Source: Prevotella sp. (GTDB taxonomy: Bacteria; Bacteroidota; Bacteroidia; Bacteroidales; Bacteroidaceae). Taken from it: 62,763 nucleotides of DNA. The notes under the pieces are model-generated. The model saw only the letters and a program-made list of their open reading frames with translations, did no database searches and was not told the DNA's origin. The position numbers were made by a program, and so were the translations under genes. The DNA is taken from contig JAFSRY010000035.1 in assembly GCA_017445845.1 (NCBI GenBank), positions 1 to 62,763 on the forward strand. Direction: 5' to 3'. Below, one piece after another: positions 11,579-52,171 of the stretch. The stretch's first letter is position 1. Every line of letters begins with the position of its first letter.

Positions 11579-11754
11579 TGTAATGCTGTTATCAGTGGCA
11601 GGTAATAGGCTTATCTCATAGACGTAAGGGTGCCGATACAGCCTTTCGTGACCGCCGAAACGTTGTTTTGTCAGTCCCGACGCTATGCATCGGCATTGTC
11701 GATGCTATGTTTCGGCATTGTCGAAGCAGCCTTTCGGCCGCGAAGAGGGTGGGC
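11579..11754. repeat. 22-bp phased dyad-repeat array (array A, 8 units)
   Basis: Eight consecutive 22-nt units in one register. Each can be read as a 15-nt segment, often with dyad symmetry, plus a 7-nt spacer. The early units are AT-type (GTAATGCTGTTATC, then GGTAATAGGCTTATC with spacer tcataga). The later ones are GC-type with perfect 4-bp arms in three: TTCG/CGAA (11645), ATCG/CGAT (11689) and TTCG/CGAA (11711). The same family occurs at 30040, 38245 and 52036. It lies upstream of both ileS and the TonB receptor, outside their reading frames. Confidence 0.7.
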
Positions 11755-30039: not shown

Positions 30040-30193
30040 TCTGAAATTTGTATCTCATAGAGGTATGCCTATTGCATGTTTGTGAGTATCGTGTTACTTA
30101 TATGAGGTAATCGTATTACTTGCAACAAGTACAAATCAGAGGTTTTGCTACCGACAATAAGAAAGCCTCGCAATACCACCGCCGAAACGAAGA
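30040..30193. repeat. 22-bp phased repeat array (array B, 7 units)
   Basis: Seven 22-nt units in one register between valS and recJ. Two have clear dyads: AGTATCGTGTTACT (30084 unit) and GTAATCGTATTAC (30106 unit). The first unit ends in TATC-tcataga exactly as the unit at 11601 in array A, and the last unit carries ACCGCCGAAACG at positions 7-18, the same positions as in the 11645 unit of array A. The fifth and sixth units are degenerate. Confidence 0.6.
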
Positions 30194-34032: not shown

Positions 34033-34121
34033 GTAATGAGTCGTTTTGTCGTTTAGGGAAGTTACCCAAATCTTTCTGAATCACAAAACCATCAAACGAC
34101 CCAAAAAACTTGAGGTTTCCT

Positions 34122-34152
34122 TTTGCCGTTTGCTCACTTATTCGTAACTTTG
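34122..34152 (+). promoter_or_regulatory. Promoter of pgi
   Basis: TTTG (34122-34125), 19 nt, TAACTTTG (34145-34152), about 50 nt before the pgi ATG. Confidence 0.75.
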
Positions 34153-34203
34153 CAGCAAAGAAAAAATATATAAATAATAGAATATCATAATTATAATAAG
34201 AAA

Positions 34204-38244: not shown

Positions 38245-38574
38245 TTCGGGAGTGTCGATAGGCTGCTTCGGGAGTGTCGATAGGCCGCTTCGGGAGTGTC
38301 GATAGGCCGCTTCGGGAGTGTCGATAGGCCGCTTCGGGAGTGTCGATAGGCTGCTTCGGGAGTGTCGATAGATAGCTTCGTGGGTGGCGATAGATAGGAC
38401 CGGAATTATTATCTCACACAGGTAATCGTGTTAACAAGCACAGATAATCCGATTATCAGTGCTTGTTAACACCATTATCAGTGCTTGTTAACACCATTAT
38501 CAGTGCTTGTTAACACCATTATCAGTGCTTGTTAACACTATTACCTGTGCTTGTTAACACTATTACCTGTGCCT
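38245..38574. repeat. 22-bp phased repeat array (array C, 15 units in two classes)
   Basis: Exactly 330 nt = 15 x 22. Units 1-7 (38245-38398) are GC-type, starting TTCGGGAGTGTCGATAGG; unit 8 (38399-38420) is transitional, ending TATC-tcacaca; units 9-15 (38421-38574) are AT-type, such as GATAATCCGATTATC plus agtgctt and GTTAACACCATTATC plus agtgctt (three identical copies). The class switch keeps the 22-nt register. The 9th-11th units form a larger palindrome: GTTAACAAGCAC and GTGCTTGTTAAC around GATAATCCGATTATC. Together with the hairpin at 38641 it fills the 514-nt gap between the convergent sialidase and EF-G2 genes; no gene is seen there. Confidence 0.9.
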
Positions 38575-38640
38575 GATAATGATCAGGGGGCTAAGACATC
38601 GCCGAGGCAGTCCTGAACTATCGCAGGTCGGAAAACGTAC

Positions 38641-46822: not shown

Positions 46823-48064
46823 TTATGCCAGACACTTGTCGAGTTCGGCGGCTATGGCTTCTTTATCGAGGTGTTGGCCTATGAAGACGAGTTTCTGCAT
46901 ACGGTCGCCGTATTCTTCGTCCCAGTCGCGCTGCAGGTCTGGGTTCTGCGCGATAAACTGCTCCAACTGCCCTTTGGGCATCGTTGCATACCATTGGCCG
47001 GCGTTTCGGATGCTGACCTGTCGGCCTGCCTGTTCAAAGACGTAGCAGGTTTCACGTTCGTCATCGAAGTAGCAGATGCCTTTGGCTCTGATGACGCTCT
47101 TTGGAAACTTGCGTGCAACAAACTCATCGAACAGCCCGAGGTCGAACGGGCGACGGCGGTAATAGACATACGTTCCGATGCCATATTCTTCAGCTTCGCC
47201 TTCATCATGGTGGTGATGGTGGTGTTCATGCTCATGTTCGTGCTCATGTTCGTGTTCATGCTCATGTTCATGCTCATGTTCGTGTTCATGCTCATGTTCA
47301 TCGTCATCATCATCGTCATCATGGTCTTCGTGATGGCCTTCAATCTCCTGTATCCATGCCGCCGAGGTTGCAACATGGTCAAAGTCGAAGAGGTTGGTAT
47401 TGATGATTTTGTCGAGGTCAACGTCACCGTAGTCACAGTTGATGATTTCTGCCTTTGGCTGTATGGTTCGGATAATCTCGCGGATGCGTCCGAGTTCATC
47501 GGGTTTCACCTCGCTGGCTTTGTTGAGAAGGATGATGTTGCAGAACTCAATCTGTTGTATGACGAGGTTTTCAATATCGTCTTCTTCGATATTCTGTCGG
47601 GTGAGTTGGAGTCCTCCTTCGAATTCGTCTTTCATGCGGAGGGCATCGACGACGGTGACGATGCAGTCGAGGCGGGGTATGCCGACGTTGGTCACCTCGG
47701 GTGCCATTGAGGGTATGGAGCAGATGGTTTGTGCGATAGGTGCCGGTTCACAGATGCCGCTGGCTTCAATGACGATGTAGTCGAAGCGGTTCATGGCGAT
47801 GATGTCTCGCAGCTGTTCGACAAGGTCCATCTTCAGTGTGCAGCAGATGCAGCCGTTCTGAAGGGCAACGAGGCTTTCGTCCTTTTTTCCGACGATGCCT
47901 CCCTGCTGGATGAGGTCGGCATCAATATTCACTTCGCCGATGTCGTTGACGATGACGGCAAACTTAATGCCTTGTTTGTTGGTGAGAATTCTATTTAATA
48001 ATGTAGTCTTTCCGCTGCCGAGATAGCCTGTCAGCAGGAGCACAGGTGTTTCTTTCTTGTTCAT
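46823..48064 (-). CDS. CobW/G3E-family GTPase metallochaperone with poly-(Glu-His) tract
   Basis: A 413-aa G3E GTPase. P-loop GYLGSGKT at 13-20, the metal-binding CxCC motif at 72-75 (GCICC), NKAS-type guanine motif (LLNKASEV) and the C-terminal CobW_C domain ([13 protein letters not shown]). Between them lies a striking tract (about 245-290) of Asp, then about 14 Glu-His pairs, then six His, which should bind several Zn or Ni ions. Members with CxCC are mostly zinc or nickel chaperones. It lies between pyrI, a zinc-site protein, and glyA; a zinc-supply role is inference. Confidence 0.9.
47205..47330. repeat. Low-complexity repeat encoding (Glu-His)n
   Basis: A run of near-identical hexamers (TTCATG, CTCATG, TTCGTG, GTCATC) inside the CobW gene encodes alternating Glu and His, flanked by His and Asp runs. 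The repeat is prone to length change by slippage in multiples of 3 or 6 nt. Confidence 0.85.
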
Positions 48065-49692: not shown

Positions 49693-52005
49693 ATGAGGAA
49701 GTTTTTTATACGTTTGTTGTGGAGTTTGCTGTTGCTCGTTGTTCTCTGCTCTGCCGGAGCCTTTTGGGCAATATGGAACGGATGGGTCGGCTATATGCCC
49801 GATATTGAGGACCTGCAAAATCCCATCAACCGTTATGCTACACAGATATTTTCTGCCGATGGTAAAGTGCTCGGCACATGGAACATGAACAAGGAAAACC
49901 GTGTCAACGTGAATTATGAAGACCTGGCACCCCATCTTGTCCAGGCCCTCGTCGACACCGAAGACAAACGTTTCTATGAGCATTCAGGAATAGATTTCTA
50001 TTCACTGATGCGTGCCATTGTCAAGCGAGGCATCTTCCAGCAGACGTCTGCCGGCGGCGGTTCCACCATTACTCAGCAGCTGGCCAAGCAGCTCTACTCG
50101 GAGGCAGCCCACAGCAAGACCGAACGAATGCTGCAGAAGCCCATCGAGTGGGTCATCGCCGTGAAACTCGAACGTAACTATACAAAGGAGGAAATCATCG
50201 CTCTCTACTTGAATTACTTCGACTTCCTCCACAATGCCGTGGGCATCAAGACTGCTTCGAAAACCTACTTCAACAAGGAACCGCGCGACCTGACCGTCAA
50301 CGAGGCCGCTACTCTTGTAGGCCTCTGCAAGAACCCTTCCTATTTCAATCCCGTTCGCTACAACGAGCGTAGTCGGGGGCGTCGTAACGTCGTCCTGCAG
50401 CAAATGTATAAGGAAGGCCACCTTACCGCCGAGGAATTGGGCCGCTATAGTGCCGAACCCCTTGTGCTCGACTTCCACCGAACCGACCACAAAGAGGGTC
50501 TTGCCACTTATTTCCGTGAGTTCCTCCGTCAGTATATGACAGCCCAGAAGCCTTCCCGAGGCGACTATCCTTCGTGGAACCAGAACCAATTCTTCTTCGA
50601 CTCCCTCTGCTGGGTAAGCGATCCGCTCTATGGTTGGTGTAACAAGAACCACAAAAAGGGTCGTCCGTACAACATCTATACCGACGGACTCAAGGTCTTC
50701 ACAACGCTTGACTCCCGTATGCAACAATATGCCGAGGAGGCCGTCTATAACCATGTTGCCAAATACCTGCAGCCCCTTTTCGACAAGGAGAACCGAGGCA
50801 AATCGAATGCTCCTTTCACCAACGACCTCACCGCCAAGCAGGTGGAGGCCATCCTCAACCGTTCCATCCGTCAGAGCGAGCGCTATCGGGCGATGAAGGC
50901 TGACGGCGCGACCGATGAAGAGATACAGCAATCCTTCCGCACAAAGACCGACATGACGGTCTTCACCTATCATGGCGAACGTGACACGACGATGACGCCG
51001 CTCGACTCCATCCGCTACTATAAGTCGTTCCTGCGTTCGGGCTTCGTCAGCATGGAGCCGCAGAGCGGAGCCGTCAGAGCCTATGTGGGAGGACTGAACT
51101 ATAGGCACTTCATGTATGACATGGCTACCAGCGGACGTCGTCAGGTTGGCTCAACCATCAAGCCCTTCCTCTATTCACTGGCAATGGAGAACGGCTTCAC
51201 GCCCTGCGACCTTGCGCCTAATGAGGAACGAACCTATATGGTTGCCGGAAAACCGTGGACGCCGCGCAACTCCGGTCGTGCACGCTATGGCGAGATGGTG
51301 ACCCTCGCATGGGGACTGGCACAGTCGAACAATTGGATATCGGCCTACATCATGAGTCAGCTTTCGCCACAGCAGTTCGTCAGTCTGTTGCACGACTATG
51401 GTATCCGTAATCCTGACATTCACCCCTCCATGTCACTCTGTCTCGGGCCTTGTGATATTTCTGTCAGCGAGATGGTGAGCGCATATACTACCTTCGTCAA
51501 CGGCGGCATCCGCACGTCACCACTCTACGTCAGCCGAATTGAAGACAGTGAGGGCAACCTGTTGGCTGAGTTCCAACCCCGCATGAACGAAGTCATCAGT
51601 GCAGAGAGTTCCTACAAGATGATTGGTCTGTTGCGCGGTGTCATCGATGGTGGAACAGGCTCGCGCGTGCGTTTTAAATATAATGTACCCGGAGAGATTG
51701 GCGGCAAGACCGGAACCACCAACCGCAACAGCGATGCCTGGTTCATGGGCTTCACACCGCAACTCGTCAGCGGATGCTGGGTGGGAGGCGAAGACCGCGA
51801 CATCCACTTCGGCTCGATGGCCATCGGACAAGGAGCCTCAGCTGCGCTGCCTATTTGGGCAACCTACATGAACCGTGTCTTCGCCGACAAGGCACTGGGC
51901 TATTCTGCTGAAGCCCACTTCAAGCTGCCCGAGGGCTTCCAACCCTGTGACGGCGACTCCATAGATGCCGTTTCTGCCTATGGTATCGATGAAGTCTTTG
52001 AGTAA
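49693..52005 (+). CDS. Penicillin-binding protein 1A (bifunctional transglycosylase/transpeptidase)
   Basis: A 770-aa class A PBP polymerising and cross-linking peptidoglycan. N-terminal membrane anchor (RLLWSLLLLVVLCSAGAFW), GT51 domain with EDKRFYEHSGID and GGSTITQQLAKQLYSE, and transpeptidase domain with SxxK at Ser487 (STIKP), SNN, and KTGTTNRN. The ATG at 49693 is chosen; an upstream in-frame TTG would place the start in the promoter. A 167-nt inverted repeat begins at the last base of its stop codon. Confidence 0.95.
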   Translation: MRKFFIRLLWSLLLLVVLCSAGAFWAIWNGWVGYMPDIEDLQNPINRYATQIFSADGKVLGTWNMNKENRVNVNYEDLAPHLVQALVDTEDKRFYEHSGIDFYSLMRAIVKRGIFQQTSAGGGSTITQQLAKQLYSEAAHSKTERMLQKPIEWVIAVKLERNYTKEEIIALYLNYFDFLHNAVGIKTASKTYFNKEPRDLTVNEAATLVGLCKNPSYFNPVRYNERSRGRRNVVLQQMYKEGHLTAEELGRYSAEPLVLDFHRTDHKEGLATYFREFLRQYMTAQKPSRGDYPSWNQNQFFFDSLCWVSDPLYGWCNKNHKKGRPYNIYTDGLKVFTTLDSRMQQYAEEAVYNHVAKYLQPLFDKENRGKSNAPFTNDLTAKQVEAILNRSIRQSERYRAMKADGATDEEIQQSFRTKTDMTVFTYHGERDTTMTPLDSIRYYKSFLRSGFVSMEPQSGAVRAYVGGLNYRHFMYDMATSGRRQVGSTIKPFLYSLAMENGFTPCDLAPNEERTYMVAGKPWTPRNSGRARYGEMVTLAWGLAQSNNWISAYIMSQLSPQQFVSLLHDYGIRNPDIHPSMSLCLGPCDISVSEMVSAYTTFVNGGIRTSPLYVSRIEDSEGNLLAEFQPRMNEVISAESSYKMIGLLRGVIDGGTGSRVRFKYNVPGEIGGKTGTTNRNSDAWFMGFTPQLVSGCWVGGEDRDIHFGSMAIGQGASAALPIWATYMNRVFADKALGYSAEAHFKLPEGFQPCDGDSIDAVSAYGIDEVFE

Positions 52006-52171
52006 TCTCTTTGTATCGTCTTATGGTTCAAAAATTGGAACGGCTACTTCCACACACTGATAAGCCTGTTATCAGTGTGAGATAATACAGTTATCAATGT
52101 GTGATAATCCTATTATCTGTGTGTGGAAGTAGCCGTTCCAATTTTTGAGCCATAAGACGATACAAAGAGAT
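52005..52171. repeat. 167-nt near-perfect inverted repeat downstream of PBP1A
   Basis: Left arm 52005-52063 pairs with right arm 52113-52171: 57 of 59 positions are Watson-Crick complementary, with one G-T pair (52027/52149) and one mismatch (52058/52118). The 49-nt loop (52064-52112) holds the middle of a 22-bp dyad array. The left arm begins at the final base of the PBP1A stop codon. As RNA it would form a very long hairpin. Confidence 0.92.
52036..52145. repeat. 22-bp phased dyad-repeat array (array D, 5 units)
   Basis: Five 22-nt units, each 1 nt + 15-nt dyad + spacer: GGAACGGCTACTTCC, GATAAGCCTGTTATC, GATAATACAGTTATC, GATAATCCTATTATC, GGAAGTAGCCGTTCC. All five dyads are perfect in the four or five outer pairs although the arm sequence changes between GGAA/TTCC and GATAA/TTATC. 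Same 22-nt period and layout as arrays A-C. Confidence 0.85.

What the first reader, a model, noticed from the sequence alone, without database searches (positions are those of the whole stretch)
11579..11754. The 22-bp element is a family at four loci, with arms that change together to keep symmetry
Arrays at 11579, 30040, 38245 and 52036 all have a 22-nt period and a 15+7 layout. Arms differ, yet in many units both arms differ together: TTCG/CGAA, ATCG/CGAT, GATAA/TTATC, GGAA/TTCC. Paired change is the mark of selection on base pairing or on binding by a dimeric protein, rather than on sequence. Other units, mainly in B and in the GC class of C, are imperfect. All arrays avoid coding DNA and three directly follow the 3' end of a plus-strand gene (valS, sialidase, PBP1A).
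Basis: partly seen in the sequence, partly recalled or inferred. Interest (0 to 1): 0.88.

Follow-up and report, generated by a model that had tools for sequence, protein, structure and literature searches.

The report
Regularly spaced 22-bp half-site arrays, Prevotellaceae
Gut and oral Prevotella-type bacteria carry, mostly between their genes and in at least one species at strikingly even intervals, small arrays built on one fixed 22-bp mirror-image ruler whose spelling differs from species to species, most simply read as landing platforms for an unidentified DNA-binding protein that may help organise the chromosome.

Summary
Arrays A, C and D are real; B is weak. They share one 22-bp lattice: alternately oriented 5-bp half-sites with gaps of 5 and 7 bp, so a dyad every 11 bp. 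GC-type and AT-type units of A and of C lie in one register. The genome (a Prevotellaceae MAG) has about one array per 24 kb. A letter-free geometry scan finds the lattice, with other half-sites, in 16 of 80 named Prevotellaceae loci and in none of 0.395 Mb of other Bacteroidales. Half-sites vary singly, alike in both orientations: half-site reading by a symmetric protein, not base pairing. New: in H. loescheii, arrays of about four units sit every ~15 kb, far more evenly than chance on two contigs; the window's genome lacks close neighbours. Arrays favour convergent genes. No RAYT-type transposase was found in either genome. Best reading: platforms for an unidentified dimeric DNA-binding protein, probably for chromosome organisation. 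Main rival: a MITE-borne selfish minisatellite spaced by target immunity. The protein was not identified.

The parts
11579..11743 (.). Array A: composite AT-type then GC-type half-sites in one 22-bp register, between divergent tRNA-synthetase and TonB-receptor-like genes
   Evidence: lattice score 79.8 against Markov maxima 1.7-11.2
30050..30120 (.). Array B: degenerate run of seven lattice positions after valS; weak
   Evidence: by eye; score 5.7; best remaining spot in the window, not above all controls
38245..38393 (.). Array C, GC-type part (TTCGG-N5-TCGAT-N7 units), after a BNR/sialidase-like gene
38399..38583 (.). Array C, AT-type part (G[ATG]TAA-N5-TTA[TAC]C-N7), in register with the GC part (176 = 8 x 22 bp)
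   Evidence: lattice score 99.1
52037..52146 (.). Array D: three perfect GATAA-N5-TTATC units with in-register GGAA/TTCC-type half-sites on both sides, after the PBP1A gene
   Evidence: lattice score 67.9
52005..52063 (+). left arm of the long inverted repeat around D
   Evidence: 97% to 52113-52171 minus; outer part not found elsewhere in the genome, inner part recurs at three other contigs with E below 0.01
52113..52171 (-). right arm of the long inverted repeat around D

Best explanation
Each array is a double-stranded DNA platform for a symmetric DNA-binding protein. The protein's monomer reads a site of about 11 bp (core 5 bp), and monomer sites alternate in orientation so that a dyad falls every 11 bp and all subunits lie on one face of the helix, about eight monomers per array in H. 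loescheii. Shown here: the geometry, half-site independence, the differing half-sites of different species, intergenic and convergent-gene bias, near-constant array length and even spacing in H. loescheii. Inferred: that a protein binds, that it is a dimer or cooperative oligomer, and that platforms every ~15-25 kb bridge or mark the chromosome (architecture, segregation or division control) rather than regulate the neighbouring genes.
For: No compensatory excess; single half-site changes with similar spectra in both orientations (GATAA/GTTAA/GGTAA/GATCA against TTATC/TTAAC/TTACC/TGATC; TGGAA/TGGAC/TGTAA/CGGAA against TTCCA/GTCCA/TTACA/TTCCG). Geometry scan of 1.96 Mb of Prevotellaceae: 36 clusters at period 22 against 2-11 at 18-21 and 23-29. 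Tandem repeats found by identity alone: 23 at period 22, 0-5 at every other period from 15 to 33; 21 of the 23 lie outside ORFs >=100 aa. H. loescheii: 572 two-unit matches in the genome, 0 in five others; clusters at period 22: 33 and 30 on two contigs, 0-3 at other periods; 25 and 26 arrays on 400 and 376.7 kb, spacing CV 0.41 (a 363-bp pair merged; 0.47 unmerged, P 0-0.0002) and 0.38 against null means 0.78-0.95; 0 of 5000 draws as even, for four null models on the first contig and three on the second. Exclusion holds for bare arrays alone (n 26, minimum 10.6 kb, P 5e-5) and for MITE-flanked ones (n 24 after merging, minimum 9.2 kb, P 4e-4). Window's genome: 34 arrays in 811,881 bp, minimum spacing 5.2 kb, P 0.0008 uniform, 0.0024-0.0027 gap nulls. 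Convergent sites: own 14 of 34 against 44 of 223 gaps >=100 bp (P 0.008; 0.015 against gaps >=180 bp); H. loescheii 25 of 50 against 63 of 310 (P 2.5e-5; 1.6e-4 against long gaps). Two half-site classes in register in one array.
Against: No protein identified. Evenness of spacing in the window's own genome is marginal by CV (0.66 against 0.87, P 0.04-0.05), and even spacing was tested in two genomes only. Within the bare and MITE-flanked subsets the CV alone is not significant (P 0.08 and 0.05). Density varies greatly: two single-contig same-genus genomes (G016, G024) showed one scan hit each in 200 kb, and the G016 one looks like chance; 64 of 80 named loci showed none. 16 of the 23 identity-found period-22 repeats are not significantly palindromic as consensus (P >0.05). 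25 of 51 H. loescheii arrays have MITE-like flanks, so spread by transposition is at least part of the story. Several half-site classes in one array need either several proteins or a tolerant one. Own-genome arrays vary in length (3 to more than 10 units), unlike H. loescheii.
Confidence: 0.42

Rival explanations
1. Selfish minisatellite carried by miniature transposons (BrickBuilt-like). The lattice is a transposase or host-factor binding array, and the minimum spacing is target immunity or purging of close copies by recombination.
For: In H. loescheii 25 of 51 arrays have MITE-like flanks, 20 on both sides; a ~584-bp element with terminal repeat CGCGAGTTCGGGATAA, and flanks that I read by eye, without a control, as short duplications in 4 of the 9 pairs of 583-586 bp. 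Transposons with target immunity exist (recalled). BrickBuilt is a MITE-borne 23-nt minisatellite (PMC4596501).
Against: 26 of 51 arrays show no MITE flank, yet bare arrays alone keep a 10.6-kb minimum distance. In the window's genome no shared element ends were found: of 42 arrays tested only D and L019 have long flanking inverted repeats, and D's is mostly local. Geometry is kept with different half-sites across species.
Confidence: 0.3
2. Neutral slippage product: short palindromes amplified in tandem, with symmetry restored by template switching.
For: Tandem copies are near-identical within some arrays, e.g. C; D and L019 are near-perfect large palindromes.
Against: Slippage does not predict one period, one gap pattern, even spacing or near-constant array length; no compensatory excess.
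Confidence: 0.1
3. DNA-uptake signal with species dialects (comparison recalled, not tested).
For: Intergenic, inverted pairs, species-specific, spread over the genome.
Against: Long cooperative-looking lattice, few copies (about 100 extrapolated in the window's genome), no competence evidence examined.
Confidence: 0.06
4. RNA element: terminator or 3'-end hairpins.
For: Bias to gene ends; H. loescheii 15-mers can fold (median -2.8 kcal/mol); in the own genome only 3 of 44 gene ends facing an array have a terminator-like site in between (crude scan without a control).
Against: No covariation, no wobble excess, own 15-mers do not fold; tandem and divergent sites are common; no Rfam match in the window but a tRNA.
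Confidence: 0.06
5. REP/BIME family moved by a RAYT (Y1) transposase.
For: High-copy, intergenic, palindromic, alternating units, species-specific. Y1_Tnp proteins are common in relatives: 39 of 60 genomes, among them G028, which has arrays; the nearest named relative G060 has one.
Against: No Y1_Tnp match in the window's genome (75.5% complete) or in seven of eight other genomes searched, including H. loescheii with its 572 matches.
Confidence: 0.04

Closest known systems
REP / BIME (PMC2817692; abstract and outline seen)
   Same: intergenic, palindromic, alternating orientation, high copy, species-specific, suggested role in chromosome organisation
   Different: unit is an 11-bp half-site lattice of period 22; no Y1/RAYT match in the two array-rich genomes studied; near-even chromosomal spacing in H. 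loescheii
BrickBuilt, Porphyromonas gingivalis (PMC4596501; abstract, sections 5 and 8, first part of section 7 read)
   Same: MITE-borne intergenic minisatellite in a Bacteroidales; its Table 1 lists neighbours such as leuS and argS; the paper also mentions 22-nt tandem repeats reported earlier in strain W83
   Different: 23-nt direct repeat found only in P. gingivalis and P. gulae, IS5-like ends GAGACCTT...; no dyad lattice or even spacing described in the parts read
PINSR, Prevotella intermedia 188-bp repeat (PMC4755523; abstract and found passages read)
   Same: intergenic, 177 and 184 copies in two strains, i.e. one per about 17.8 and 14.7 kb by my division of the reported sizes; no CDS; genus Prevotella
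   Different: sequence is in a figure not held, so whether it contains a 22-bp lattice could not be tested; reported as specific to one group of species and without terminal inverted repeats
Noc and SlmA binding sites (recalled)
   Same: palindromic sites spread over the chromosome and bound by a dimer
   Different: those are single sites as recalled; no clear ParB paralogue was found

Membership tests
REP/BIME with RAYT | high-copy extragenic palindromes in alternating orientation | tested here: met
   34 arrays in 812 kb, 51 arrays in 777 kb of H. loescheii; 0 of 34 inside ORFs, 1 of 51
REP/BIME with RAYT | Y1/RAYT transposase in the genome | tested here: not met
   no match in own genome (75.5% complete) nor in H. 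loescheii and six others; present in 1 of 8 and in 39 of 60 relatives
REP/BIME with RAYT | GTAG or CGTC tag at one end of the palindrome | not tested
   feature from a search listing (PMC3733652)
BrickBuilt MITE | 23-nt repeat unit | tested here: not met
   period 22 in own genome, H. loescheii and other Prevotellaceae
BrickBuilt MITE | terminal repeats of the GAGACCTTYGCA type | tested here: not met
   H. loescheii element ends CGCGAGTTCGGGATAA; flanks of own arrays share no long terminal repeat
PINSR | the 188-bp consensus | not testable with these tools
   consensus only in a figure
MITE | terminal inverted repeats plus target duplication | tested here: inconclusive
   seen in part of the H. 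loescheii arrays; not seen as a shared feature in own genome
Structured RNA | compensatory base-pair change | tested here: not met
   Rfam
Noc-type nucleoid occlusion sites | a ParB paralogue | tested here: not met
   one HTH_ParB match in six of seven genomes; the seventh has a second, weak partial match

The most novel reading that the evidence does not exclude
Prevotellaceae have a chromosome-organising system in which platforms of about eight 11-bp half-sites, spaced about 15 kb apart, are bound by a fast-evolving DNA-binding protein, so that each species has its own dialect on one fixed 22-bp ruler; PINSR of P. intermedia would be one dialect.
Probability: 0.28. Interest if true: 0.9.

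Novelty: new variant of a known kind. Interest (0 to 1): 0.72.

Why it matters
A fixed geometry with freely changing letters and even spacing along the chromosome is unusual among bacterial repeats. If the arrays are protein platforms they offer a direct handle on how these chromosomes are organised, and the different dialects would let the specificity of the protein be read from genomes alone. It may also explain a repeat family (PINSR) described in 2015 whose function is open in the passages I read.

Tried and rejected
Covariation as evidence for pairing: tested in two genomes, rejected. Gapless multiple alignment of arrays of different species for a covariance model: MAFFT shifted the register, so no RNA model was built; the geometry was tested by scripts instead. 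RAYT: no match in own genome and H. loescheii. Noc-like ParB paralogue: none clear; TetR_N proteins number 0-5 per genome and do not discriminate. Plasmids: no match for two queries. Viral contigs: 0 and 1 match for two patterns; the one locus (L275) was not read. Literature: ten searches gave BrickBuilt and PINSR as the nearest; my statement that no description of the lattice and its spacing was found rests on those only. PMC5217627 was checked by term search only: Prevotella and '22 bp' do not occur.

Limits: arrays of other species were picked by pairing, so their symmetry cannot be used as evidence; the independent evidence is the period control, which used identity only. In one search, 7 of the 23 period-22 arrays have a palindrome P below 0.05 (the script counted 4 below 0.01) and 16 do not; L051 was left out and the own genome and the H. 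loescheii stretches were not in it. One search also shows period 33 enriched (20), which follows from dyads every 11 bp. The other-family sample wrongly held L118 (same genus); one search shows that the one period-22 cluster counted there lies in L118, so the other families have 0 in 395,387 bases. One search counted only units with each arm within one change of the AT consensus, within two; changes from one class to another are outside those counts. Some clusters look like chance (e.g. L049, L182, L196, L199). Gene calls are a longest-ORF heuristic; background gaps include the gaps that hold arrays, and the 25 of 50 counts a 363-bp pair in one gap twice. In one search peaks within 600 bp count as one array, and the weight matrix was made from own-genome arrays. 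B did not pass the scans.

Full report
WHAT IS THERE. The window is contig 93 of a 2.46-Mb, 103-contig MAG, 75.5% complete. Of the 80 records kept for its PBP1A (best 86% identity), 79 bear titles of Prevotella, Prevotellaceae or genera such as Hoylesella, Hallella, Leyella, Segatella and Marseilla, and one only 'bacterium UBA3734' (Hoylesella and Marseilla looked up as Prevotellaceae). Arrays A, C and D are confirmed and B is weak. The repeating unit is best described as two alternately oriented 5-bp half-sites separated by 5 and 7 bp, so that a dyad falls on a base every 11 bp. In A, and across the two halves of C, units of quite different sequence (GATAA/TTATC type and TTCGG/CCGAA type) keep one register; in C the distance is exactly 8 x 22 bp. 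In several of the other arrays of this genome the AT units are bordered in register by GC-type half-sites (ATCGG-AAGTA-TTATC...) or by GGAAC-GGCTA-TTATC and the like, and L123 holds three classes of arm (CGGAA, CGATA and AAAAT types) in one register.

HOW COMMON IN THIS GENOME. A two-unit AT pattern gives 57 matches in the genome, and 0 for the same pattern read backwards. A half-site PWM lattice score over nine contigs (811,881 bp, the window included) finds 34 arrays above 14 bits, while the Markov controls (one per contig) reach at most 11.2: one per 23.9 kb, about 100 in the genome by extrapolation.

THE SAME RULER IN OTHER SPECIES. A scan that uses only complementarity and period, no letters, over 80 named loci (1.18 Mb) gives 20 clusters at period 22 and gap 5, against 0 to 8 for the same gap at all other periods from 14 to 32; period 33 gives 20, as expected from dyads every 11 bp. 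The 20 lie in 16 of the 80 loci. Over 1.96 Mb there are 36 clusters at 22 against 2 to 11 at the other periods from 18 to 29; other Bacteroidales families give 0 in 395,387 bases, against 0 to 4 at other periods (which corrects for one misplaced locus). Arms differ between species: AAAAC/GTTTT, TGTAA/TTACA, TGGAA/TTCCA, TGCAC/GTGCA, TACAA/TTGTA and others. Because that scan selects for symmetry, the check that counts is the one by identity alone: tandem repeats of period 22 number 23, every other period from 15 to 33 gives 0 to 5, and 21 of the 23 lie outside ORFs of 100 aa or more; only 7 of the 23 are palindromic at P below 0.05 as a consensus. The strict two-unit AT pattern is present in 5 of 60 genomes searched, the own genome among them, and a slightly wider one in one copy in the nearest named relative (G060). 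That relative also has, after its PBP1A gene, three or four in-register half-sites that I read by eye as a remnant of D.

BASE PAIRING OR HALF-SITES. If pairing were under selection, complementary double changes should exceed independence. They do not, in either genome, for either gap. Instead each half-site varies on its own, with similar variants in both orientations; in H. loescheii the linker holds a T at its third base in 219 of 240 and an A at its fifth in 214 of 240, and the loop edges are mostly Y and R. Mismatched pairs show no G.T preference over A.C (18 against 22 and 17 against 20 in the own genome; 10 against 9 and 11 against 10 in H. loescheii), and own-genome 15-mers do not form RNA hairpins, while those of H. 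loescheii could (median -2.8 kcal/mol). This is the pattern of a protein reading half-sites.

SPACING. In H. loescheii DSM 19665 the TGGAA class has 572 two-unit matches with up to two mismatches in the genome and none in five others. On contig C1 (first 400 kb) there are 25 arrays (24 after merging a 363-bp pair), mean spacing 16.4 kb, CV 0.41, minimum 4.6 kb; on C2 (376.7 kb) 26 arrays, mean 14.4 kb, CV 0.38, minimum 9.2 kb. None of 5000 random draws was as even, whether positions were drawn from all bases, from all intergenic gaps or from long gaps (both contigs), or from convergent gaps (C1 only, C2 having too few); without merging the C1 value is 0.47, P 0 to 0.0002. Most arrays have seven to nine half-sites: 21 of 25 and 25 of 26. 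About half of the arrays (25 of 51) have flanks of a ~584-bp MITE-like element, but bare arrays alone keep a minimum of 10.6 kb (P 5e-5) and MITE-flanked ones 9.2 kb (P 4e-4); within each subset the CV alone is only marginal (P 0.08 and 0.05). In the window's genome the shortest of 25 intervals is 5.2 kb (P 0.0008 uniform; 0.0024 and 0.0027 with gap nulls); its CV is marginally low (P 0.045, 0.054, 0.038).

CONTEXT. Convergent gene pairs are favoured: 14 of 34 in the own contigs against 44 of 223 gaps (P 0.008), 25 of 50 in H. loescheii against 63 of 310 (P 2.5e-5; one of its 51 arrays lies inside a predicted ORF and was left out). An earlier set of own arrays gave 17 convergent, 16 tandem and 6 divergent of 39 classifiable out of 43. 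A crude terminator scan found a terminator-like site between gene end and array at only 3 of 44 gene ends, so the arrays may be transcribed; this neither helps nor excludes the protein reading.

MECHANISM. The simplest account is a symmetric DNA-binding protein whose monomers occupy successive 11-bp turns, about eight per array, giving a cooperative platform. Even spacing, convergent location and differing half-sites suggest a role for the chromosome as a whole rather than for single genes. The protein is unknown. A Y1/RAYT transposase was not found in H. loescheii or in the window's genome, though 39 of 60 relatives have such proteins; a Noc-like ParB paralogue was not found. The strongest rival is a MITE-borne selfish minisatellite with target immunity; it explains part of the H. 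loescheii data but not bare arrays, nor the same geometry with other letters elsewhere.

KNOWN RELATIVES. REP/BIME are the nearest in function as proposed, BrickBuilt the nearest in build, PINSR the nearest in taxonomy and in density (177 copies in 3.15 Mb, 184 in 2.70 Mb; PMC4755523, passages). Whether PINSR carries the lattice could not be tested. Ten literature searches found no description of the lattice or of its spacing; the BrickBuilt paper mentions 22-nt tandem repeats in P. gingivalis W83 without further detail.

Noticed in passing
window 34103-34166: A leader/promoter-like stretch ending in TAACTTTGCA recurs elsewhere in the own genome and in the nearest relative; looks like a Bacteroidota promoter family (recalled).
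   Followed up: partly
window 47222-47301: A near-perfect 30-bp tandem repeat (98% matches) that overlaps a minus-strand ORF of 413 aa; perhaps a His/Glu-rich protein stretch, not translated here.
   Followed up: no
L217-L236 and L256-L274 (H. loescheii): A second lattice class, TGTAG/CTACA (= TACAA/TTGTA), about 11 arrays in 777 kb, between the TGGAA arrays.
   Followed up: partly
L218 17978-18561 (C1:37978-38561) and similar: 584-bp MITE-like element with TIR CGCGAGTTCGGGATAA that carries a four-unit array near its middle.
   Followed up: partly
L019 1464-1636: An array enclosed by an 18-bp perfect inverted repeat, the whole forming one large palindrome like D.
   Followed up: partly
L123 1456-1741: One array in which three different arm classes follow each other in a single 22-bp register.
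   Followed up: no
L275 1111-1147: The only viral contig (IMG/VR) with a two-unit GATAA lattice match; may be host flank.
   Followed up: no
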